From Lepas anatifera (lineage: Eukaryota > Arthropoda > Thecostraca > Lepadidae), in the NCBI GenBank assembly GCA_034440635.1, contig JAOTON010000056.1:565501-629500 (forward strand): a DNA stretch of 64,000 nt. The letters are read 5' to 3'. The notes below the pieces were generated by a model that was given only the letters and a program-made list of their open reading frames with translations, did not search any database and was not told the origin of the DNA. Made by a program: the position numbers and the translations under genes. Positions 35,942 through 41,130 of this stretch are shown in pieces; the stretch's first letter is position 1; each line of letters starts with the position of its first letter.

Positions 35942-35953
35942 AGTTTGCTCTTC
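35942..35953. repeat. Candidate 5' target-site duplication of the retro-unit
   Basis: AGTTTGCTCTTC occurs here and again at 41119-41130, directly after the A-run that closes the retro-unit. A 12-bp direct repeat in this arrangement is typical of LINE-mediated insertion. Confidence 0.6.
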
Positions 35954-36738
35954 CACGATGGTCCACGTGGATGGTCCACGTGCTCTCGGATGGAGAAGAC
36001 GCTCTGGCTGTAGCTCGTCATCTTGAGTCTCTTTTCTAGACATTTAACATTTTTTTGCCTTGGGGCCCTGATTGTGCTTTTCTTGAAACTATTTCTCAAC
36101 TGTTGAAACATACATTTTCTTGGCTCATGTTTTAGTTTTTTCTTGACTTGTTACTTTTATCTTGCGTCGGATTCGCCACGATTGCCTCGTTCGTTGCAAA
36201 TGTTCATACATGGTCCCCGCATGGTACACTTGCTCGGAAAGCAACGCTACATGTTACAAGAACCACCTCACTGCTTATTCCAGAAAAGGGATGACAAAAC
36301 AAGCTCTGTTTATGCAGAATACCATGGAATCGGTGTTGAAGACGATCTCGGCGTTATCGGCAAGTAACGACTATTCAGTCATTCAGTCATGCATGTAGGG
36401 TATAAATCTATATGAGTACGTGTAGGGCAGTACCTTTCCTCAAGTAATTTATCACCAAATGACTGCAAACCGACATATATGCCAATTTGGTATTTTAATG
36501 ATTTCGCCGCATTTCCTTAGCTTTCGGCCAGACCAGCACCAATTTTCAAACAAGAACGTGACGTTGTTCCATAGGAACCACTAGTAGAGTAACATCATGC
36601 TGCATTCATTATCCAAAATTATAATCGCCGTCTATTCCGATAGTAGAATCATTCACGGCTTGCATCCCCTGAGACAAATTCCAATACGTTAGCGCATGGC
36701 CCTTTGTTGAACGTCATACCAAGCTCTTTAATTTATTC
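35954..36738 (+). other. Probable 5' part of the inserted retro-unit
   Basis: The stretch lies between the candidate duplication and the PHD-finger ORF. It has no recognised coding sequence. An ORF at 36162-36398 (MTKQALFMQNTMESVLKTIS) is unassigned. It may be the 5' untranslated region or an unrelated older piece. Confidence 0.35.
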
Positions 36739-38928
36739 ATGTCTGACTGCACAAAAGAATACAGCTGCGCTAGATGTCCCAGCCAATCCACTCGTAAGGC
36801 GGCCATCAGTTGCAGTGCCTGCAGCCAACGCTGGCACACGTCTTGTGCGAAGCTCACGGTTGCCCAGGCTCGTGCACTTACCACTTGGCACTGTCCATCC
36901 TGCCTCGGCCGCCATCAGGCCACTTCTACTTCTGCTACATCTAAGCCCGACTTACCTGCACGTGGCTTATCTGCTGGTCTGGCCCACATTGCGCGCGCAC
37001 TGCTGTAATTGCAAGAATTCCGAAAGGTGCCCGCTCGGCAGTAGCTGATGGACTATCCAATAGCATCAACGAGGCGATTTCGGGTAATAGCACCCAGTCA
37101 TGGTGGCAACTACTTACATTTGCCTACGCTGTTCTCCGTAACCCTGTAAAATCAGACAAGGCCCCACGGCTGTCCACGGCTACCATGATCAAGAAACAGC
37201 TCGATGATATGGAGATATTGACATTACAAGAGCCTACAAAACGTCCGAATATGAATGATACCACCGATTCTGATGCCATCACGCGGCGTGTGCACGCAAA
37301 ACTCGCCGACGGCGACATCCGTGCGGCCCTTCGAGTCCTTACTTCTAACGACGCCCTTGTAGAACCGACTGAAGAGATAATCGCAGCATTGAGCGAGAAA
37401 CACCCGCCAGCCCCAGAAGACGAGTCTCTTCCGCCTCCACCCTGTGACACCGACCCGCCTGCACTTAAAGTCACGGAAAAACAAGTACGACAAGCTATTG
37501 AGACCATGCTAACTGGCTCCTCAGCTGGTCTGGACGGGATCCGCCCCCTTCACCTCCGGCATCTAATATCCAAAGAGGCTTCCGAAGCCGGCTGCCGGCT
37601 GCTTACATCACTGACTTCCCTCACCAACACCATCATATCTGGTGACGTTCCCGACTGCGCTCGTCAAGCCTTATTTGGTGCTTCCCTTTTTGCATTGCGG
37701 AAAAGGACGGAGGCCTGCGCCCTATAGCTGTTGGCAGCGTATATCGCCGACTGGCTGGCCGCATCGCAGCACGTCACGCATCCAGCATCCTCGGACCCGA
37801 ATTAAGGCCTATCCAGCTCGGGGTTGGAACACCACTTGGCTGTGAGGCAGCTGTGCATGCAGTGCGCGAATACATCTCTGCTACCTCCAAAGACCCAGTT
37901 CCCCACGTCCTCATAAAACTCGACGTCCAGAACACATTTAATACCATAAGGCGAGATGTCCTTCTAACAAGCGTCCGTGAGCGGTGTCCAGACATCTATC
38001 CCTTAATGTACCAGGCGTACAGCTCTCCAGCACCTCTTCACATAGGCGATCACACTGTGATGTCGGCCAGCGGCGTGCAACAAGGCGACCCCCTCGGCCC
38101 CGTCGCCTTCGCACTAGCAGTGGATTCTGTTGCACGGGCTGTACAGTCACCGCTCAACCTGTGGTACCTCGATGATGCCACCATTGCTGGTCCGTTGACA
38201 ACGGTCAGCGCAGATATCTATGGGCTACTCACCGCTCTACCAAAAATTGGCCTAACATTGAACGACAAAAATGTGAATTTATGACGCTGGGGATGCCATC
38301 CGACGATGTCGCCTTATCGTCAGTAAGCAGGATAAAGGAGGCTCTTCCTGCCAGCACAGAGTTGCCCCTGGAGTCTTTTACTCTTCTGGGTGCTCCTCTC
38401 TGCGACGCAGGCCTCAGCGCGGCCACTCACGCGGCCTCAAAAGCCATCAGCAGGATGTGCGACCGCCTGCGTCAGCTGGATCCCCACAGCGCGACATACT
38501 TCCTCGCCCACTATGTCTCCGCCCCAAGACTCATGTACATGCTACGATCATCCCCTACCTACAAGGTACAAAATGAACTGAGGGAGATCGACGATGTGGT
38601 ACGGAAGACACTTGCAGATGTCACCAATGTAGATATAAGTGGAGCGGCATGGGACCAGGCAGCGCTCCCTGTTAGACTGGGCGGCCTCGGCGTTCGTTCT
38701 GTGGAGGCCTTAGCCTTACCGTGCTACATCTCATCTTTGCACGCGTCGGTTTCTCTCGTTACATCTATCTTACCCACAGTCATCGCTGAAGACCCATCAC
38801 CAGCTCTTCAACAGGCCACTGACCGACTCCAAAGCTCGATCGGTCCCTACGAAATCCCAGACAAGGAAGCAGTCGGACGCCAGCGCGCATGGGACTTATT
38901 GGTGGCCGACACACGCGTAGTCAGCTAA
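36739..38928 (+). pseudogene. PHD-finger LINE-type reverse transcriptase, frameshifted
   Basis: Frame 36739-37008 opens with a zinc finger of PHD spacing: C..C, SCSACSQRWHTSC, and WHCPSC. The linker continues in another frame at about 37009-37730 (RIPKGARSAVADGLSNSINE, KLADGDIRAALRVLTSND, SAGLDGIRPLHLRHL). After a frameshift near 37700 it reads GGLRPIAVGSVYRRL and LGVGTPLGCEAAVHAV, then KLDVQNTFNTIRRDVL, ASGVQQGDPLGPVAFALAV and the catalytic WYLDDATIAG at about 38160-38190. A shift near 38280 leads to 38281-38928, with LLGAPLCDAGL and WDQAALPVRLGGLGVRS. The order is that of a widespread invertebrate retroelement protein. At least four frameshifts make it non-functional. Confidence 0.85.
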
Positions 38929-40397
38929 TGGAGGCAGCCAACCAAGTACACCGAGCGCGTCTGATGGCTGCGAGCCAACCTTACACCGGTGCCTGGCTAC
39001 ATGCCTTACCTGTCCCAAACCTTGGCCTTCATCTCGACAGGGAAACTGTTCGCGTCGCAGTCGCCCTTCGGCTGGGTGTCGCTGTTTGCGAGCCACACCG
39101 CTGCCGGTCCTGCAACCTGCCCGTCGACAAACTTGGGCACCACGGACTCTCTTGCCTGCGGAGCGCCGGCCGTTTTCCTCGTCACGCTAACCTCAATGAC
39201 GTTGTGAAACGTGCCCTCACAAGTGCAGGTATACCATCTGTCCTGGAACCAGTAGGTCTGGACCGCGGGGACGGCAAACGGCCGGACGGGTTAACGTTGT
39301 TCCCGGTCACCAGTGGAAAGTGTTTAACGTGGGACGCAACCTGTGTAGACACTTTCGCCGAAAGCGTGGTTGTTCAGTCTGCCCTAGAACCGGGAACGGC
39401 GGCGCGTGCAGCAGAGGAGAGGAAGCGGCATCGCTACGCCAGCCTGACCTCTAGGTACCGTTTCGAGCCGCTGGCAGTCGAAACAACTGGTGTACTGGGA
39501 CCCGCCGCTTCAGCCCTGTTGAGAGAGCTGGGCCGGCTCATCACGGCTGTCAGCGGTGATCGCCGAGAGACGGCCTGGCTGCGACAACGATTTTCCATTG
39601 CTGTTGTTCGAGGCAACTCCGCGGCAGTCCTTGCTACGGCCAGCCCCCGTTTTACACAGGAACATCGCCAGACGCCGTCGGCTCGACTCTCAGCATCAAC
39701 GCAGAATACAGGCGAGCGGGAGAATGCCCTGTTGCTGAAAGGCGCTCAAGCGGAGGCACCGACCCCAGAGCTGGTGCCCGCAAGCAATCGCGACCAGCAC
39801 AAGCACAGCCTGGACCCGGTATTTATCGGTCTGCCCAACTTCGGCAACTCGTGCTACCAAAACGCCACGCTGCAGTCGCTGCTGGGACTGCGGCCGTTCC
39901 TCAGTGAGATGATGACTCTGGGGCCGGCTCTGGTCGCCGAACGATGCTGCACCCTCCGCGCCGTCACCCGCCTTATGGAGCTGCGCCAGAGCGCATGCAG
40001 CACCTCCGTTTACAGCCACCTCAACCACATGCGACGCGTGTTTGCTCGAATAGACTTGGCGTTCCACAGCACTGAGATGCAGGATGCTAATGAGTTCCTG
40101 CTCAAGCTACTGAACACCATCAAGGAGGAGGTGGACGGCAGCCAACCGGCGTCCCTCAAGCAGCCGGCTGACCAGCCCGGCACTGCCGCCAATCCGGTTA
40201 GGGACAACTTTCAGTACCAAACTGTCGAGTGCTACATGTGCACAAAGTGTCAGGAGTCGGTGCTGAAGCGGCAGGACAGCATTAGCTGGTTCGTCAACGT
40301 GCCGCAGCTCCAGAGCAGCGGCGTAGCACCCACCTTGCAGGACGCGTTGCGCCTCTCCATGCGACCCGATCGGCGAGAGCTGCATTGCGAAAAGTGA
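38889..40397 (+). CDS. Chimeric ORF: retroelement endonuclease-like tail fused to USP catalytic domain
   Basis: One open frame of 502 codons. Residues 1-255 or so are the carboxy end of the retroelement protein. They hold a zinc-knuckle-like HRCRSCNLPVDKLGHHGLSC, then the PD-(D/E)XK-like pair KRPDGLTLF and CLTWDATCVD, then YRFEPLAVETTGVLGP and RFSIAVVRGNSAAVLATAS. After about 50 linker residues comes a ubiquitin-specific protease domain of USP37/USP29 type. It has GLPNFGNSCYQNATLQSLLG with the catalytic cysteine at residue 322 (codon 39852-39854), then TEMQDANEFLLKLLNTIKEE, and the zinc-site pair CYMCTKC. The frame stops at TGA 40395-40397, just after LHCEK, where related proteases have a second Cys pair. 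No intron interrupts it. Whether it is expressed is unknown. Confidence 0.8.
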   Translation: MGLIGGRHTRSQLMEAANQVHRARLMAASQPYTGAWLHALPVPNLGLHLDRETVRVAVALRLGVAVCEPHRCRSCNLPVDKLGHHGLSCLRSAGRFPRHANLNDVVKRALTSAGIPSVLEPVGLDRGDGKRPDGLTLFPVTSGKCLTWDATCVDTFAESVVVQSALEPGTAARAAEERKRHRYASLTSRYRFEPLAVETTGVLGPAASALLRELGRLITAVSGDRRETAWLRQRFSIAVVRGNSAAVLATASPRFTQEHRQTPSARLSASTQNTGERENALLLKGAQAEAPTPELVPASNRDQHKHSLDPVFIGLPNFGNSCYQNATLQSLLGLRPFLSEMMTLGPALVAERCCTLRAVTRLMELRQSACSTSVYSHLNHMRRVFARIDLAFHSTEMQDANEFLLKLLNTIKEEVDGSQPASLKQPADQPGTAANPVRDNFQYQTVECYMCTKCQESVLKRQDSISWFVNVPQLQSSGVAPTLQDALRLSMRPDRRELHCEK

Positions 40398-40404
40398 CGA
40401 TTCA

Positions 40405-40953
40405 ATGCGGATGGACTCGGCTGAGCCGGTGCAACCCATGGCGCCGCTGCCCTTTGATCCTCCGCAGACGTCGGACGCCGATCTGGAGGAGCTGGCGGAG
40501 CAGGACGGAACCCAGGAGCGGCCAACGCGCCCTGTTGACGACGAGGAGAGTCAGCAGCAGGAGGCTGTCGGACGCCCACTGCAGGAGGGCGCGCCGGCCG
40601 ACTTCGCCGCCGAACAGACACGGCTTTCCCAGCTCTGCGCGGAGGACGACGACTCAGCGGCTGAGAGTCTAGCAGTGAACCCGGCCGGTGTCTACAGCTA
40701 CCGGCTGGTGGGCCTAGTCAGCCACTATGGCAGCGCCACTCAGGCCGGACACTACGTGGCAGACGTCTACAGCCTTGGTAGGGACCGCTGGTTTCACTAT
40801 GACGACCGCAGCGTCACCTGCGTCTCAGAACACCACGTGCTGCACAATGGATCCCAGCATGACGGCTACATCTTTTTCTACCAACACACAGACCTGTGCA
40901 GGCAGGTGGCCAATTTAGAAATTGGTCCTTGCAGTGGGCATTCGATACGCTAG
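40405..40953 (+). pseudogene. USP37-like carboxy half, out of frame with the cysteine half
   Basis: It lies in another frame from the preceding ORF. It contains an acidic low-complexity stretch (SDADLEELAEQDGTQERPTR), then YSYRLVGLVSHYGSATQAGH, YVADVYSLGRDRWFHYDDRS and HDGYIFFYQH. GHYVADVY holds the catalytic histidine (codon 40750-40752) and WFHYDD the third catalytic acid. Compared with USP37, the part between the first Cys pair and the His box is shortened. The second CxxC and the 'LP..LilHLKR' phrase are absent. The stop is TAG at 40951-40953. I infer a deletion plus a frameshift, so this copy is unlikely to be an active protease. Confidence 0.8.
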
Positions 40954-41086
40954 CGCGTCATATCGCCGAACCGTAGATCAGTGATATATTAGCAGATAAG
41001 TTATCAGATAAGATACTCAGTGTGAGGGCATATCCTGGAACAGGTATGCACCATTCTCCTCATCTTGTGAATGACATGTGCCATAT

Positions 41087-41119
41087 AATAAATTATAGGT
41101 TTCTATAGTAAAAAAAAAA
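41087..41119 (+). terminator. Poly(A) signal and copied poly(A) tail
   Basis: AATAAA at 41087-41092 is followed 17 bases later by ten A residues (41110-41119). This is the 3' end expected of a reverse-transcribed mRNA. The second copy of the candidate target duplication starts at 41119. Confidence 0.75.
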
Positions 41120-41130
41120 GTTTGCTCTTC

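What the first reader, a model, noticed from the sequence alone, without database searches (positions are those of the whole stretch)
35954..41119. Reverse transcriptase fused in one reading frame to a deubiquitinase domain
The 502-codon frame 38889-40397 joins the endonuclease-like tail of a PHD-finger retroelement protein (KRPDGLTLF, WDATCVD, RFSIAVVRGNSAAVLA) to a USP37-type domain (GNSCYQN, QDANEFLL). The USP continues to its His box at 40750, then a stop, AATAAA and A10. Some LINE groups (NeSL, Dualen/RandI) are known to carry OTU or Ulp1-like cysteine proteases, but I know of none with a USP. Two explanations fit: a LINE lineage that captured a host deubiquitinase, or a single chimeric retrocopy made by template switching. 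The first would be a new kind of retroelement accessory enzyme.
Basis: partly seen in the sequence, partly recalled or inferred. Interest (0 to 1): 0.88.

Follow-up and report, generated by a model that had tools for sequence, protein, structure and literature searches.

The report
LINE retrotransposons carrying swappable deubiquitinases
The window holds a dead copy of a jumping gene whose intact sister copies encode, in one protein, a reverse transcriptase joined to a USP-type protease domain that was likely taken from a host gene and is predicted to strip ubiquitin, which would give the element its own protection against protein breakdown.

Summary
The window carries a LINE insertion (35954-41118, between 12-bp target-site duplications), inactive through frameshifts and a ~218-bp deletion in the USP. 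Two sister copies encode one uninterrupted protein of 1,500/1,501 codons: PHD finger, R2-like reverse transcriptase, zinc knuckle, restriction-like endonuclease (RLE), then a USP with intact Cys, His and Asp/Asn. A second family in the same genome has the same USP37-type domain on a very different RT: synonymous divergence is saturated in RT/RLE but about 0.45 in the USP core, where dN/dS is about 0.23. RT and USP trees conflict (p-AU 3e-7, 4e-41). Three further RT lineages in this genome carry a USP8-type domain; relatives in the barnacle Amphibalanus and in unnamed public contigs carry USP2-, USP8-, USP35/38- and perhaps USP30-type domains at the same place. This LINE clade thus has a C-terminal slot filled by different deubiquitinase-like domains. 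Whether LINEs trade them or repeatedly capture them is open: stand-alone USP37-like proteins of Amphibalanus interleave with the LINE-borne ones. Enzyme activity and benefit (likely protection of the element's own protein) are inferred. Eight paper searches listed no USP in a LINE.

The parts
35942..35953 (.). 5' target-site duplication AGTTTGCTCTTC
   Evidence: exact 12-bp repeat of 41119-41130
35954..41118 (+). whole LINE insertion, inactive copy; 99.1-99.3% identical to L009, L011 and L012 in the long aligned block
   Evidence: blastn against copies in the same genome, TSDs
36739..40953 (+). position of the single reading frame (interrupted here; 1,478 codons from the first ATG in L009)
   Evidence: intact frames in L009/L012; motif positions
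36757..36909 (+). PHD-type finger (Pfam PHD E 6e-4, under the curated cut-off)
37697..38315 (+). reverse transcriptase domain (RVT_1; KLDVQNTFN 37916, GVQQGDP 38072, YLDD 38165); broken by frameshifts in this copy; ends approximate
   Evidence: Pfam on intact sister, motif positions, R2 protein by PDB sequence search
39102..39155 (+). zinc knuckle C-X2-C-X8-H-X4-C ahead of the endonuclease
39276..39635 (+). restriction-like endonuclease region (RPDG ... WDATC)
   Evidence: RPDG and WD-T-C invariant in the 34 rows of alignment A1; position
39636..39818 (+). linker; DNA similarity between the two families starts here (about codon 1003 of the sister frame)
   Evidence: blastn family 1 against family 2
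39819..40395 (+). USP domain, N-terminal part: Cys box GNSCYQN 39843-39863, QDANEFLL 40080-40103, two CxxC pairs
   Evidence: Pfam UCH on the sister
40396..40953 (+). USP domain, C-terminal part in another frame after a ~218-bp deletion: His box 40747-40767, WFHYDD 40789-40806
40954..41118 (+). 3' UTR with AATAAA at 41087 and A10 at 41109-41118
41119..41130 (.). 3' target-site duplication

Best explanation
This is an inactive copy of an RLE-type LINE retrotransposon family whose intact copies encode one protein with PHD finger, reverse transcriptase, endonuclease and a C-terminal USP domain, the USP likely captured from a host USP37-like gene and predicted to act as a deubiquitinase that protects the element's own protein from ubiquitin-dependent removal. 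Shown: one frame in intact copies, insertions flanked by target-site duplications, a conserved Cys/His/Asp-Asn set, purifying selection on the USP, and a USP that entered at least one of two RT lineages after these had split. Inferred: the host origin of each USP (nearest known families USP37, USP8, USP2, USP35/38), its activity, its substrate, the benefit, and whether the slot is refilled by trade between LINEs or by new capture. Most likely working: the protein binds its own RNA, nicks the target with the RLE and reverse-transcribes there, while the tethered USP removes ubiquitin from the same particle (in cis) or from target chromatin; different USPs can serve, so the slot is refilled with different ones.
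Against: No enzymatic or expression data. Host USP37/USP8 genes of this genome could not be retrieved (genome search busy). Of 39 type-A entries P0116-P0154, 36 show no RT/RLE similarity, and 7 of 9 LINE-borne type-A domains align better to a stand-alone protein than to another LINE's domain, so trade between LINEs is not shown against repeated capture. Type A has no close PDB relative (best USP46, 1e-12), and its grouping with fish USP37-like rests on long branches (warning). A UIM-like pattern, expected of USP37 (recalled), is in 3 of 9 type-A domains and Pfam listed no UIM in seven proteins scanned. P0113 lacks the Cys box and P0002 the His box; P0009, P0014, P0016, P0028 and P0033 end inside the USP. 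dN/dS over the whole USP is 0.35-0.36 and in its insert 0.67-0.70. The neutral control is thin: dead passenger copies give 0.44-1.13 on 14-33 changes.
Confidence: 0.75

Rival explanations
1. The USP is kept for action on chromatin or on a host silencing factor in trans (for example histone or piRNA-pathway deubiquitination at the target), not for protecting the element's own protein.
For: An N-terminal PHD finger suggests chromatin contact; USPs of families with different host roles fill the same slot.
Against: A tethered domain in the same polypeptide acts in cis most simply; no substrate is known.
Confidence: 0.3
2. Different LINE lineages each captured USPs from stand-alone genes, again and again, and do not trade USP blocks with each other.
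For: At least four USP families are present, so at least four captures are needed. In barnacle data 36 of 39 type-A entries have no RT/RLE part; in a 36-row type-A tree stand-alone and LINE-borne rows interleave (8 changes, at least 4 on starred branches), and 7 of 9 LINE-borne domains have a stand-alone protein as best match. P0113 shares linker with P0116. USP8-type rows form one group only at 89/83 and fall in two long-branched sets.
Against: P0004 and P0003, in one genome, are each other's best match and one clade at 100/100 on unlike RTs. Some stand-alone entries may be broken LINE copies: P0117 and P0124 pair at 100/100 with the LINE proteins P0005 and P0023.
Confidence: 0.45
3. USPs are passively captured 3' parts or recombination by-products without function.
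For: 3' ends do switch: one family-2 ORF is followed by three different 3' UTRs that part within about 10 bases after the stop. Relatives such as P0029-P0032, P0035 and P0036 end 3-17 residues after the RLE match, so a USP is not needed by every lineage.
Against: dN/dS 0.23-0.25 in the USP core over dS 0.44-0.49 and 0.16-0.27 in 9 of 10 USP8-type pairs; 21 of 21 complete domains picked keep the catalytic set; recurrences all of one enzyme family.
Confidence: 0.08
4. One chimeric retrocopy made by template switching, without a family.
For: The window copy alone is broken and could look like this.
Against: Copies with the same junction at separate places with their own target-site duplications.
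Confidence: 0.01

Closest known systems
R2 and other RLE-encoding non-LTR retrotransposons (clades CRE, R2, R4, NeSL, HERO as listed in PMC4640811; passages seen)
   Same: One ORF, R2-like RT, zinc knuckle, C-terminal RLE, target-site duplications and 5' truncation; PDB sequence and Foldseek matches to R2 protein
   Different: A long C-terminal extension with a USP; the duplicated target sequences found differ from copy to copy
NeSL and Utopia-1_TSP LINEs with Ulp1-like cysteine protease (PMC4640811; passages seen)
   Same: RLE LINE with an accessory protease of the ubiquitin/SUMO system
   Different: Ulp1-like and N-terminal there, nematodes; here USP (UCH) and C-terminal, of several types
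Dualen/RandI LINEs with OTU-like protease (recalled; no call)
   Same: LINE with a protease of a deubiquitinase family
   Different: Different protease family; no OTU match in the proteins scanned
Helitrons/Helentrons with VTD or OTU deubiquitinases (PMC9741609; 12 of 24 passages seen)
   Same: Mobile element with a DUB that can come from different DUB classes; the authors argue this for Helitrons and herpesviruses
   Different: Rolling-circle DNA transposons; the find call counted no 'retrotransposon' or 'reverse transcriptase' in that paper
Insect LINEs with captured viral SF1 helicase (PMC6338049; part 1 of 4 read)
   Same: Accessory enzyme domain captured by a LINE
   Different: Viral helicase, not a host-like protease; no refilled slot described in the part read

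Membership tests
RLE-type (R2-like) non-LTR retrotransposon | RT of the non-LTR type close to R2 | tested here: met
   RVT_1 E 1.7e-15; R2 proteins 9nl3/9dou E about 1e-10
RLE-type (R2-like) non-LTR retrotransposon | C-terminal zinc knuckle and PD..D endonuclease | tested here: met
   CX2CX8HX4C at P0004 812-829 (the pattern failed in 3 of 9 rows tried); RPDG and WD-T-C invariant in the 34 rows of A1 (in A2 the P is only nearly invariant); Foldseek to R2 over 835 columns for P0024. That these motifs mark an RLE is recalled
RLE-type (R2-like) non-LTR retrotransposon | no APE endonuclease, single ORF | tested here: met
   no such match listed for P0002-P0004 at E up to 1; one long frame per intact element
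RLE-type (R2-like) non-LTR retrotransposon | target-primed insertion marks (TSD, 5' truncation) | tested here: met
   repeats of 9-14 bp or more at both ends in 8 of 15 copies; the 9-bp ones (L012, L022) are within what shuffles gave; L010 and L013 5'-truncated
RLE-type (R2-like) non-LTR retrotransposon | placement in one named clade (CRE, R2, R4, NeSL, HERO) | not tested
   no reference elements of those clades were fetched
USP (peptidase C19) deubiquitinases | UCH domain with Cys and His boxes, catalytic Asp/Asn | tested here: met
   UCH E 3.5e-41; 21 of 21 complete domains picked keep C, H and [DN]D
USP (peptidase C19) deubiquitinases | USP fold | tested here: met
USP (peptidase C19) deubiquitinases | ubiquitin hydrolase activity | not testable with these tools
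   needs a bench assay
USP37 subfamily (type A domain of the window) | closest to USP37 among USPs | tested here: inconclusive
   profile reaches fish proteins (three named USP37-like; best 4.7e-33) before USP2a (1.2e-15); tree groups them 98/94 but with long branches and few references
USP37 subfamily (type A domain of the window) | UIM motifs in the insert (recalled) | tested here: inconclusive
   pattern in P0023, P0051, P0113 of 9; Pfam listed no UIM in the 7 proteins scanned
NeSL (Ulp1) or Dualen (OTU) protease LINEs | Ulp1 or OTU protease domain | tested here: not met
   Pfam scans list UCH, not Ulp1/OTU
Helitron/Helentron with DUB | RepHel protein | tested here: not met
   no Rep or helicase match listed; RT and UCH instead

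The most novel reading that the evidence does not exclude
A clade of LINEs runs an open C-terminal enzyme slot: host deubiquitinases of at least four families (USP37, USP8, USP2, USP35/38) were captured into it, several times over or traded between reverse-transcriptase lineages inside one genome, and are kept active by selection as counter-defence against ubiquitin-based control of the retrotransposition protein.
Probability: 0.55. Interest if true: 0.92.

Novelty: new variant of a known kind. Interest (0 to 1): 0.87.

Why it matters
Accessory proteases in LINEs are rare and unexplained (Ulp1 in NeSL; OTU in others, recalled). Here one clade holds USPs of several families at one place, which suggests that deubiquitination itself, rather than one host substrate, is what the element needs. 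That makes a question testable: is ubiquitin-dependent turnover of the RT particle a host defence that LINEs evade? It also shows LINE ORFs gaining or exchanging whole enzyme blocks, and it warns that some barnacle proteins named USP37, USP2 or USP38 in databases (P0113, P0024, P0025) are LINE proteins.

Tried and rejected
Single chimera or assembly error: rejected.

The 60 matches with shared stops as independent LINE copies: rejected on the 5 of 60 examined (L023-L027), which are 90-99% alike far outside the RT-USP piece; the piece is a passenger in another repeat, which has a further RT-like frame (my reading, no domain search).

My first reading that type-A USPs of LINEs form a clade of their own: withdrawn. 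The 14 USP37 rows are 8 LINE-borne and 6 stand-alone, and stand-alone rows interleave. For this I raised the repeated-capture rival from 0.25 to 0.45 and reworded the novel case.

5' self-cleaving ribozyme of the R2 kind: no Rfam match in six loci at E up to 5 except one IRES family below its gathering score; none in the window at gathering scores.

Known domain in the non-USP tails (DPELARYL, PWGELFGAR): none by Pfam in the 8 proteins scanned. Cysteine-rich N-terminus of family 2: no Pfam match.

Papers: listings (20 of 3,144 seen; 20 of 28; 14 of 14; 2 of 2; 8 of 8; 0; 5 of 5; 12 of 35) showed no LINE with a USP; preprints outside PMC and most subscription papers are not covered.
Full report
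Observation. The window (G000:C53:565501-629500) contains at 35954-41118 a LINE insertion bounded by a 12-bp duplication AGTTTGCTCTTC (35942-35953 and 41119-41130), with AATAAA at 41087 and A10 at 41109-41118. Against L009, L011 and L012 the window copy is 99.1-99.3% identical in its long block, lacks about 218 bp inside the USP at 40395/40396 and is broken by frameshifts. It is a dead, young copy.

The family. tblastn of the 502-aa product gives 101 matches in the same genome, with 85 of 1,130 candidates scored. By identity and stop pattern I sort them into 10 loci of the window's family, 15 loci (31 rows) of a second family, and 60 copies with shared stops. Five of those 60 were read (L023-L027): they are 90-99% alike over kilobases outside the RT-USP piece, so there the piece rides in another repeat. 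Two family-1 loci, on contigs of 2.1 and 0.5 Mb, hold uninterrupted frames of 1,500 (L009) and 1,501 codons (L012). Repeats at both ends were found in 8 of 15 copies of both families: window 12 bp, L009 up to 10, L012 9, L013 11, L018 14, L019 12, L020 14 and 19, L022 9; not in L010, L011 (its locus is cut), L014-L017 and L021. In one search shuffled flanks of the nine family-2 copies gave 8-9 bp at the 95th percentile and at most 9-12, so the 9-bp repeats are weak; the four family-1 copies with a repeat had no such control. L010 and L013 are 5'-truncated.

The protein. On P0004 (L009) Pfam gives PHD 32-77 (E 6e-4, under its cut-off), RVT_1 343-548 (1.7e-15) and UCH 1053-1477 (3.5e-41). PDB sequences give USP46/12/14 for the tail and R2 retrotransposon proteins for 267-625. 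A zinc knuckle CX2CX8HX4C stands at 812-829 and the RPDG...WDATC endonuclease motif at 871-892. The C-terminal domain has the Cys box (C1062), two CxxC pairs, His box (H1434) and WFHYDD.

Homologs. A whole-length search gave 107 relatives (only the 7,984 candidates sharing most words were scored). Precomputed Pfam lists both RVT_1 and UCH for 14 of 107; six more (P0023, P0051, P0055, P0091, P0092, P0094) carry UCH and the same RLE motif; P0111 has a USP-like match only. Named ones with RT or RLE and USP are from the barnacle Amphibalanus amphitrite (there called USP2, USP38, uncharacterized). A USP-only search added P0112 and P0113, and a profile of eight type-A domains listed 46 (7,990 candidates scored): 21 named from A. 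amphitrite, 1 from Pollicipes pollicipes, 7 from fish, 17 unnamed. In 24 of the 39 entries P0116-P0154 a Cys box was found and all 24 read CYQN. The window's genome is therefore probably a barnacle's, but it is unnamed.

Several USP types. PDB sequence searches assign USP2 (piece of P0033, E 1.5e-73, next USP21 1.2e-55), USP8 (P0012, 1.4e-91, next USP15 1.3e-76), USP35, standing for USP35/38 (P0025, 9.3e-51, next USP12 3.5e-21), and weakly USP30 (62 aa of P0016, 5e-7). Type A, the window's, has no close PDB relative (USP46 1e-12); its profile reaches fish proteins, three named USP37-like, at best 4.7e-33, and USP2a at 1.2e-15. The other rows were typed by motif reading, and most of them by the USP tree; P0009 and P0028 were not in that tree. 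P0092 matches human USP8 from about 37 residues before the catalytic domain.

The same genome holds a second type. A search with P0025 gave 34 matches (34 of 2,916 candidates scored). I read the C-terminal parts of 8 of the 34 loci: five (L031-L034, L038) carry a USP8-type domain (L033 E 7e-69, next USP15 4.5e-63) on three RT lineages, the one in L032 being cut short; three (L035-L037) end instead in a short tail with DPELARYL. Frames without inner stop reach 1,445 codons (C1036).

Different histories of RT and USP. In a tree of RT/RLE regions (93 rows, quick method) the labels need 17 changes in all; USP37 needs at least 7, USP35/38 4, USP2 3, USP8 2 on starred branches. P0001, P0093-P0111 (P0094 among them), P0114 and P0115 were left out, and some rows labelled 'none' are cut off at the end of their protein (P0020 and P0027). 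In a USP tree (29 rows; P0157 dropped) each type is one group: USP37 100/100 (8 LINE-borne and 6 stand-alone rows), USP2 99/95, USP8 100/99, USP35/38 100/100; with five own-genome rows added, USP8 is one group only at 89/83. The RLE tree (35 rows; P0092 and P0094 of 37 intended were missing) rejects the USP-tree pairs P0004+P0003 (p-AU 2.9e-7) and P0005+P0023 (4e-41); P0113 has a long odd branch there. In DNA, families 1 and 2 have pS about 0.76 in RT and RLE (dS 2.7-2.8 or saturated) but dS 0.44-0.49 in the USP core. The similarity starts in the linker (about codon 1003) and ends near codon 1491; the 3' UTRs give no significant match. So the USP entered at least one of the two lineages after their RTs had split. 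USP8-type pairs of unlike lineages show the same tendency: RLE identity 0.46-0.55 with dS 2.5 to saturated, USP identity 0.61-0.66 with dS 0.95-1.36; within one lineage (L031/L038) both parts agree, dS 0.74 and 0.75.

Trade or capture. Against a simple story of trade, 36 of the 39 type-A entries P0116-P0154 have no RT/RLE similarity. In a type-A tree of 36 rows stand-alone and LINE-borne rows interleave (8 changes, at least 4 on starred branches), and 7 of 9 LINE-borne domains align better to a stand-alone protein than to another LINE's; P0004 and P0003 are each other's best. P0113, a LINE protein, shares 82% over 56 linker residues with the N-terminal half of stand-alone P0116, which looks like capture from such a gene. 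Some stand-alone entries may be LINE fragments: P0117 is 96.5% identical to P0005's domain. Both routes may operate.

Selection. dN/dS of the USP core is 0.23-0.25 between families, 0.67-0.70 in its insert and 0.35-0.36 over the whole domain; 0.16-0.27 in 9 of 10 USP8-type pairs and 1.03 between the near-copies L031/L032. Dead passengers compared with each other give 0.44-1.13 on 14-33 changes over the USP, a thin control. All 21 complete USP domains picked keep the catalytic set (P0001 and P0004 are near-copies; L031 lacks its first CxxC pair). Outside that set P0113 lacks the Cys box and P0002 the His box.

3' ends. Family-2 copies carry three different 3' UTRs that part within about 10 bases after the same stop. 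The alternative of L018 lies inside a 14-bp duplication, that of L022 inside a weak 9-bp one. 3' replacement thus happens in these LINEs and offers a route by which new tails arise (inference).

Mechanism. Shown: anatomy, mobility marks, different histories of RT and USP, purifying selection. Inferred: the USP is an active deubiquitinase that acts on the element's own particle. That USPs of different families fill one slot suggests that the tether, not the native substrate, sets the target; this favours action in cis. Chromatin or silencing factors remain a rival.

Novelty. LINE proteases known to me are Ulp1 (NeSL, Utopia-1_TSP; PMC4640811 passages) and OTU (recalled); Helitrons carry VTD or OTU deubiquitinases (PMC9741609 passages), where the authors argue that different DUB classes can serve. 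The listings showed no paper on a USP in a LINE; for only part of the matching papers was listed.

Noticed in passing
P0011, P0017, P0026, P0037, P0039, P0041, P0042, P0048, P0050; L035, L036, L037: USP-less relatives end in a recurrent short tail with DP[ED]LA.Y[LF]; no Pfam match to it in the four of them scanned. Another filler of the same C-terminal slot, function unknown.
   Followed up: partly
P0019, P0021, P0022, P0049, P0050: A second recurrent non-USP tail with PWG[EQ][LI]FGA; P0050 carries both tails.
   Followed up: no
L023-L027: A dead RT-USP fragment (83-84% to the intact element) sits inside another amplified repeat with an RT-like frame of a different kind, which spread it.
   Followed up: partly
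L016, L018, L021, L022 after the USP stop codon: Near-identical ORFs continue into unrelated 3' UTRs within about 10 bases of the stop.
   Followed up: partly
P0116, P0118-P0121, P0123, P0125, P0126, P0128-P0131, P0133 and others: Amphibalanus amphitrite has many predicted USP37-like proteins without RT part and with a CYQN Cys box where one was found: an expanded gene family or LINE remains.
   Followed up: partly
L014 2747-2900; P0040 1-133: The N-terminus varies as well: family 2 has a cysteine-rich stretch without Pfam match instead of PHD; P0040 has a zf-C4 finger before its PHD.
   Followed up: partly
P0156-P0160: Fish (Dallia, Coregonus, Esox) hold USP37-like proteins, three Dallia entries on contigs of one length, with a LPNIGN[ST]CFLNATLQ Cys box.
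   Followed up: no
P0142: An A. amphitrite protein named Dscam2 carries a UCH domain of type A, probably a fused gene model.
   Followed up: no
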